NCBI GenBank assembly: GCA_022072445.1
Contig: JAJVHV010000018.1
Location: 1-64,000, forward strand
Direction: 5' to 3'
Length of the DNA: 64,000 bases
From: Phycisphaerae bacterium
GTDB taxonomy: Bacteria > Planctomycetota > Phycisphaerae > UBA1845 > Fen-1342
Positions 15,210 to 15,668 of this stretch are shown one piece after another (position 1 is the first letter of the stretch; every line of letters starts with the position of its first letter). Under the pieces are notes generated by a model. The model was not told the origin of the DNA. It was given only the letters and a program-made list of their open reading frames with translations, and ran no database searches. Position numbers and translations under genes: made by a program.

Positions 15210-15668
15210 AATGCAGAATGAAGAGTGCAGAATGCAGAAGGAAAGACGCGCTTCGGCGGCCCAGCCACGTGGCTGTGCCGTGCGAGACATCGGTCCGCAC
15301 CTATGCATTCTCGTTACGCATTCTGAAGGTCGTTCGCGCCATGCCGAGCGACATCGCCGCCGCGTGCGTTGCGCGGCAGCTTGTGCGAAGCGGCACCAGC
15401 GTGGGCGCCAATGTCGAAGAAGCCGAAGCCGCACATTCGAAGGCCGAGTTCATTCAGAAGATGAATATCGCCCGGAGAGAGTCGCGCGAGGCGGTGTACT
15501 GGCTGCGCCTCGTCGGCGATTCCAACATGGTCCGCCCGAGCCGACTTCGGGAACTGACATCAGAAGCAGAAGAGATCTTGAAGGTGATTACAGCGATCGT
15601 GCGGAACGCACGACGAAAGCCCTAGCGTTGGGCGATGCTTTTGCATTCTGCATTCTTCATTCTGCATT
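15210..15668. mobile_element. 459-bp cassette with 27-bp inverted ends carrying a four-helix-bundle gene
   Basis: The left arm (15210-15236) and the reverse complement of the right arm (15642-15668) agree at 26 of 27 bases. Each arm is built from GCAGAATG-like octamers. Between them is a single ORF of the four-helix-bundle (S23/IVS) family. The unit fits exactly between atpG and atpD without damaging either. No transposase is present, so mobility would have to be supplied in trans. A single arm-like copy at 31848-31884 matches 23 of 24 bases of the arm core. Confidence 0.65.
15218..15625 (+). CDS. Four-helix-bundle protein (S23/IVS family)
   Basis: The core follows the family encoded in bacterial 23S rRNA intervening sequences and in many planctomycete intergenic cassettes: [13 protein letters not shown], then [18 protein letters not shown] and [18 protein letters not shown]. 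These small proteins form pentameric four-helix bundles; a relative (bAvd) serves as accessory protein in diversity-generating retroelements, but no reverse transcriptase is seen here. The first ~25 residues read through the inverted repeat, so the true start may be a GTG further in, near the VPCETS segment. It lies in the atp operon and on the same strand. Confidence 0.75.

What the first reader, a model, noticed from the sequence alone, without database searches (positions are those of the whole stretch)
15210..15668. Inverted-repeat cassette with a four-helix-bundle gene inserted between atpG and atpD
26 of 27 bases of the two ends are inverted copies, and the only ORF between them is a S23/IVS-type four-helix-bundle protein. 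Its start codon (15218) lies inside the left arm. The unit is in the middle of an essential operon without breaking it, and a solo arm (23 of 24 bases of the core) is at 31848-31884. This looks like a non-autonomous mobile family distinct from the 23S rRNA intervening-sequence setting in which the protein is known.
Basis: partly seen in the sequence, partly recalled or inferred. Interest (0 to 1): 0.7.

Follow-up and report, generated by a model that had tools for sequence, protein, structure and literature searches.

The report
Repeat-armed four-helix-bundle cassette, atp operon
A tiny gene for a four-helix-bundle protein, bracketed by mirror-image stacks of a 7-base word, sits between two ATP-synthase genes; the same kind of cassette occurs between genes in more than a dozen bacterial phyla, with the 7- or 8-base word matched to the protein lineage, so this looks like a widespread and apparently undescribed family of mobile DNA.

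Summary
15210-15240 and 15638-15668 are inverted arms (29/31) around a TIGR02436/PF05635 four-helix-bundle (FHB) gene between atpG and atpD. The arms are tandem heptamers (GAATGCA)n, and about 60 further sites of this array lie in the genome. Among relatives, 85 of 94 FHB genes have arms scoring above the 95th percentile of control ORFs. The arms are built of 7- or 8-mers whose sequence and period follow the FHB protein lineage, not the host genome. Homologous cassettes lie between operon genes across many phyla (gltB|gltD, serC|serA, nuoC|nuoD, cas2|cas1). In Hymenobacter one junction is empty in some species, holds the cassette in others, and an FHB-less heptamer hairpin in others. Arm-to-arm homologues sit at unrelated sites, with strong purifying selection on the protein. 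The mobile-family reading is therefore supported. The atp copy itself is not a fresh insertion: 13 of 37 relatives carry an FHB at this junction and all atp-operon FHBs form one clade. It is an old resident that decays or is lost, while its two arms change in concert. It resembles a 23S rRNA intervening sequence outside rRNA, with RAYT/REP-like gene-repeat pairing. The transposition chemistry is unknown.

The parts
14260..15207 (+). atpG, upstream host gene; stop TAG at 15205-15207
   Evidence: ORF; tblastn to relatives
15210..15240 (+). left arm, about 4.3 imperfect GAATGCA heptamers
15218..15625 (+). four-helix-bundle ORF (TIGR02436/PF05635), 135 aa from ATG 15218; likelier start GTG 15269 or 15275
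   Evidence: AlphaFold pLDDT 96.5 and Foldseek 2rld TM 0.85
15638..15668 (+). right arm, inverted heptamer array
15204..15676 (+). predicted RNA stem closing the whole cassette: 31-bp arm stem plus 5 outer pairs (15204-15208 with 15672-15676); energy z = -6.2
15687..17141 (+). atpD, downstream host gene, intact
31848..31884 (+). dispersed single array (GAATGCA)5.3 of the same repeat
17184..17256 (.). FHB-less inverted heptamer pair of another unit (GCGAATA)n, 17184-17211 and 17230-17256

Best explanation
The unit is one copy of a widespread family of short mobile cassettes. Each is a ~100-120 aa four-helix-bundle gene between inverted arms of tandem 7- or 8-nt words, usually just after the stop codon of one gene and just before the next gene. 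Arms and protein travel as one unit and are matched by lineage. Shown: arms on nearly all FHB genes, arm-protein covariation, empty and filled sites in one genus, arm-to-arm homology at unrelated sites, purifying selection on the FHB. Inferred: the FHB, by homology to S23p and Avd an oligomer that handles nucleic acid, recognises its own arm words in DNA or in the RNA hairpin and promotes copying of the cassette, and probably of FHB-less arrays in trans, with host enzymes doing the cutting and joining. In the mRNA the arms form a ~31-bp hairpin that hides the insert and, as in 23S rRNA IVSs, would be an RNase III site, so the operon tolerates it. The atp copy entered this order's ATP-synthase operon long ago, duplicated among its junctions (atpH|atpA, atpA|atpG, atpG|atpD), and is decaying, while the two arms stay complementary by compensatory change or arm-to-arm correction.
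For: FHB genes versus control ORFs in the same loci: arm score median 23.5 vs 9.5; 75 of 94 above the 99th percentile; p 6e-38. Arm similarity rises with protein identity between genomes (Mantel r 0.38, 0 of 2000 permutations), is at background between different FHB lineages in one genome, and holds without flanking homology. Period by lineage: RTF 20/20 seven, GVYRA 12/13 eight, LAKxVY 13/14 eight; two lineages have no arms. Period-7 arms around most related FHBs across many phyla. Hymenobacter: same junction empty (33-37 nt), with cassette, or with FHB-less hairpin; arm-to-arm homologues elsewhere. FHB dN/dS about 0.05-0.10 where dS was measurable. GAATnnn arrays per genome: median 23.5 with the lineage, 1 without, p 3.6e-6; the effect survives correction for Y1 transposase and RT. 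atp clade 97/83; left-right arm score 0.81 within vs 0.27 between atp cassettes, p 1e-8. RNA fold z -6.2. S23p/Avd fold; IVS precedent (PMC4990558).
Against: No target-site duplication and no base-exact empty site within a species were found; filled Hymenobacter junctions have lost the original spacer. The FHB has no recognisable catalytic site. Only 6 of 43 dispersed arrays have an inverted partner within 250 nt, so most are not MITE-like. G014 has the FHB but no strict arrays, and G021 has arrays but no FHB of this lineage. The array-FHB association is a correlation; Y1 transposases also correlate. RNase III processing and translation were not tested.
Confidence: 0.62

Rival explanations
1. 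Host-benefit reading: the FHB is a domesticated atp-operon gene and the arms are a regulatory or processing hairpin that sets AtpD versus AtpG expression.
For: One atp-specific FHB clade; complementary arms kept despite unit change; strong predicted stem.
Against: 24 of 37 relatives lack it, 4 of 13 copies are broken, 3 genomes keep arms only; the same cassette type lies beside unrelated genes.
Confidence: 0.15
2. The arms are independent hairpin or REP-type repeats moved by another enzyme (for example Y1/RAYT transposases), and the FHB is passive cargo.
For: Array counts correlate with Y1 transposase counts (rho 0.53); FHB-less heptamer hairpins exist; an unrelated GxxExxY family has the same architecture.
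Against: The FHB-lineage effect remains after Y1 and RT are fitted (t 5.8); arm word and period track the FHB lineage; arms of different lineages in one genome differ; the FHB is under purifying selection.
Confidence: 0.2
3. No mobility: vertically inherited small genes whose flanks accumulated slippage repeats, with inverted symmetry from template-switch correction.
For: Orthologous atp position in many relatives; no target duplication seen.
Against: Empty junctions in congeners and arm-to-arm homologues at unrelated sites; control ORFs have no arms.
Confidence: 0.08

Closest known systems
23S rRNA intervening sequences (IVS) with S23p ORF (Leptospira, Coxiella)
   Same: One FHB ORF between inverted repeats giving a ~28-30 bp stem; ~430-460 nt; sporadic; ORF decay (Coxiella: PMC4990558)
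   Different: Lies between protein genes, not in rRNA; arms are tandem 7/8-mers matched to the FHB lineage; related arrays dispersed through the genome
REP/RAYT (TnpA-REP, REPIN) systems
   Same: A small gene flanked by inverted copies of a short repeat that is also dispersed through the genome
   Different: No HUH/Y1 nuclease; arms are tandem 7/8-mers, not REP palindromes; most dispersed arrays lack an inverted partner
Intergenic heptamer repeats (TAACTGA in Beggiatoaceae, PMC4679880; STRRs of cyanobacteria, from memory)
   Same: Tandem 7-mers in intergenic DNA
   Different: There read as regulatory or unexplained; no link to an FHB gene or inverted arms found in the paper searched
Avd protein of diversity-generating retroelements
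   Same: Same four-helix fold (Foldseek TM about 0.77); PF05635 resembles Avd (PMC10053308)
   Different: No RT, template or variable repeat; RT presence does not track the arrays

Membership tests
TIGR02436/PF05635 four-helix-bundle family | match above the curated cut-off | tested here: met
   90.2 vs 24 bits and 75.6 vs 33.8 bits
TIGR02436/PF05635 four-helix-bundle family | four-helix fold like 2RLD/2GSC | tested here: met
   pLDDT 96.5; TM 0.85
23S rRNA IVS | inserted in a helix of 23S (or 16S) rRNA | tested here: not met
   Between atpG and atpD; none of 40 related loci scanned overlaps an rRNA
23S rRNA IVS | terminal inverted repeats forming a ~28-bp stem around an S23p ORF | tested here: met
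   31-nt arms, predicted 31-bp stem
23S rRNA IVS | RNase III excision without ligation | not testable with these tools
   needs RNA data
RAYT/REP | Y1/HUH transposase encoded by the element | tested here: not met
   The only cassette gene is FHB; Pfam scan shows no Y1_Tnp
RAYT/REP | the gene's flanking repeat is dispersed in the genome | tested here: met
   about 60 sites; association with the FHB lineage
Classical IS or MITE | target-site duplication | tested here: inconclusive
   none seen at the Hymenobacter junction, but the spacer is replaced
DGR | reverse transcriptase with template and variable repeats | tested here: not met
   The own genome's single RT match is on contig C5, not near the window on C16

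The most novel reading that the evidence does not exclude
A categorically new class of bacterial mobile DNA: short cassettes bounded by inverted tandem 7-, 8- or 9-mer arrays, each array lineage matched to a small non-transposase protein (four-helix bundle, or the unrelated GxxExxY family), that spread between genes through protein recognition of the repeat words and host enzymes. It would explain many orphan intergenic heptamer repeats and place the 23S rRNA IVS as one niche of the class.
Probability: 0.42. Interest if true: 0.92.

Novelty: new variant of a known kind. Interest (0 to 1): 0.78.

Why it matters
TIGR02436 'four helix bundle protein' is a common annotation without a role. Showing that these genes are usually the core of a repeat-armed cassette, with arm words matched to the protein lineage, gives a direct test of their function. 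It offers an origin for some intergenic heptamer and octamer repeats, recasts 23S IVSs as one case of a wider family, and warns that neighbourhood methods can misread such genes (for example FHB between cas2 and cas1). Concerted change of the two arms is also a natural record of stem maintenance.

Tried and rejected
A fresh-insertion reading of the atp copy was rejected. Strict monophyly of the 11 atpG|atpD copies was neither shown nor rejected (p-AU 0.24). Reverse transcriptase as the driver was rejected (no correlation). Phage carriage: only 2 of 50,697 records; plasmids: 24 of 72,556, mostly cyanobacterial. A MITE reading of all dispersed arrays was rejected: 6 of 43 have a partner. The mismatched-pair control within one FHB lineage is inflated because members share arm words, so the control-ORF test was used instead. 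Paper searches on FHB genes with tandem repeats found no description of this association; the library is open-access only.

Full report
Observation. The inverted arms, the FHB ORF between them and the array at 31848-31884 are all present. The arms are tandem heptamers, imperfect (GAATGCA)n, not unique terminal repeats. The own genome holds about 60 more places of this array.

Protein. TIGR02436 and PF05635 are matched well above cut-off. The AlphaFold model (pLDDT 96.5) is closest to 2RLD and 2GSC (S23p) and then to Avd of the DGR. The own genome has four FHB genes; 31 of 41 genomes searched (own included) have at least one.

Arms are general. For 94 FHB genes the left flank was aligned with the reverse complement of the right flank. 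Median score is 23.5, against 9.0 for mismatched pairs and 9.5 for control ORFs in the same loci; 85 of 94 exceed the controls' 95th percentile and 75 the 99th (p 6e-38). Two FHB lineages have no arms, eight genes in all; they act as internal negative controls and may be domesticated.

Arms follow the protein. Arm similarity grows with protein identity between genomes (Mantel r 0.38, 0 of 2000), and is at background between different lineages within one genome. The trend stays in pairs without flanking homology. The period is also lineage-specific: 7 in 20/20 of this lineage, 8 in 12/13 and 13/14 of two others. A scan of named genomes finds this lineage in many phyla, including Planctomycetota, Bacteroidota, Ignavibacteriota, Chloroflexota, Verrucomicrobiota, Acidobacteriota, Nitrospirota, cyanobacteria and CPR, mostly with period-7 arms of GAATnnn, GAAGnnn or AATTnnn type. 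Typical seats are junctions of operon genes: gltB|gltD, serC|serA, TldD|TldE, nuoC|nuoD, atpH|atpA; neighbours were named by reading the ORFs, not by a database search.

Mobility. Among about 100 Hymenobacter genomes, no other one that aligns at the junction of the L224 cassette carries it there; three of those read in full hold FHB-less GAGTTAT-type heptamer hairpins. Arm-to-arm homologues (69-73% identity, ending at the arms) lie at other sites in other species. At a second junction, four species have the cassette (one with decayed arms), several have an empty 33-37 nt spacer, and others have heptamer hairpins or different hairpins. The cassette's first words supply the upstream gene's stop codon (empty ...AAG GCG CTT TAA; filled ...AAA GAA TTA TGA), and the right arm runs close to the next start codon. 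No duplication is seen; the old spacer is gone. FHB pN is 0.08-0.16 against pS 0.56-1.0 between these copies, so the protein is selected.

The atp locus. Of 37 genomes with atpD, 13 (own included) have an FHB between atpG and atpD, four of them broken (L108, L110, L111, L122); three more have arms without FHB (L104, L107, L112), and others have short spacers. All atp-operon FHBs of this lineage, including copies at atpH|atpA and before atpG, form one clade at 97/83; one genome (G034) also has an FHB of a different lineage before atpG. Strict monophyly of the atpG|atpD copies alone is unresolved. So the copy is an old resident that duplicates within the operon and decays. Its arm word differs between genomes, yet left and right stay complementary within each (0.81 vs 0.27, p 1e-8). 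That means either compensatory change under selection for pairing or copying of one arm from the other.

Dispersed arrays. GAATnnn x3 arrays are frequent in genomes with this FHB lineage (median 23.5) and rare in those without (median 1, p 3.6e-6). The effect remains after fitting Y1 transposases (t 3.4) and RT (t -0.7): FHB t 5.8. The genomes are related to each other and were not corrected for phylogeny. Most dispersed arrays are single, not hairpins (6 of 43 paired), so 'solo arm' describes them better than MITE.

Mechanism. In RNA the arms close a 31-bp stem around the whole insert (z -6.2), the layout of the Coxiella IVS, whose 28-bp terminal stem is cut by RNase III (PMC4990558). I infer that the hairpin makes the insert tolerable in an operon, that the FHB oligomer reads the arm words, and that host enzymes do the strand chemistry. 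Only the anatomy, covariation, turnover and selection are shown.

A second protein family. GxxExxY proteins (TIGR04256) in the same relatives have inverted arms of 8-9-mers (CCACAGAGGCACAGAGG and kin): 22 of 26 exceed the 99% control level. The G002 atpG|atpD spacer (L118) holds an ORF-less inverted array of that type. So the architecture is not unique to FHB, which supports a class of elements and also the rival that the proteins are accessory.

Known or new. The cassette fails the defining location test of 23S IVSs and the enzyme test of RAYTs but works like a hybrid of the two. I found no paper that links FHB genes to tandem 7/8-mer arms; the library is open-access only, so earlier reports cannot be excluded. 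I file it as a new variant of a known kind (IVS-like), with a sizeable chance that it is a new class.

Noticed in passing
L352, L353, L354 (cyanobacterial plasmids): FHB cassettes with inverted arms of short AAAAGTA-like words lie between cas2 and cas1 (Anabaena cylindrica, Nostoc), and an FHB lies beside cas1 in Pseudanabaena galeata. The published CRISPR association of '23S rRNA IVP' (PMC10910872) may include such insertions.
   Followed up: partly
L356-L385: GxxExxY (TIGR04256) genes are flanked by inverted arms of 8-9-mer repeats: 22 of 26 above the control 99% level.
   Followed up: partly
window 17147-17176 and 17262-17290: A ~26-nt direct repeat CGTAGCGTCGGCCCTCCGTGGCCACG brackets the GCGAATA inverted heptamer pair downstream of atpD.
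   Followed up: no
G000 C4:162601-164400 (L100): Two FHB genes of another lineage 1.2 kb apart, each with its own inverted arms.
   Followed up: no
L087, L098 (G006): Cassettes apparently inside a coding region, with similar upstream peptide sequence at both sites.
   Followed up: no
L125, L121: The atpG|atpD spacer of two relatives holds other genes (a secreted hydrolase-like ORF; two small ORFs), so this junction accepts varied inserts.
   Followed up: no
L273, L274, L276, L334, L341 (Hymenobacter): Other hairpin repeats (GTCATCCTGAGC..., GTCATTCCGAGC...) fill the same junctions in congeners.
   Followed up: no
window 1-496 and 32101-32275: Tandem arrays of 69-nt (7.2 copies) and 34-nt (5.2 copies) units.
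   Followed up: no
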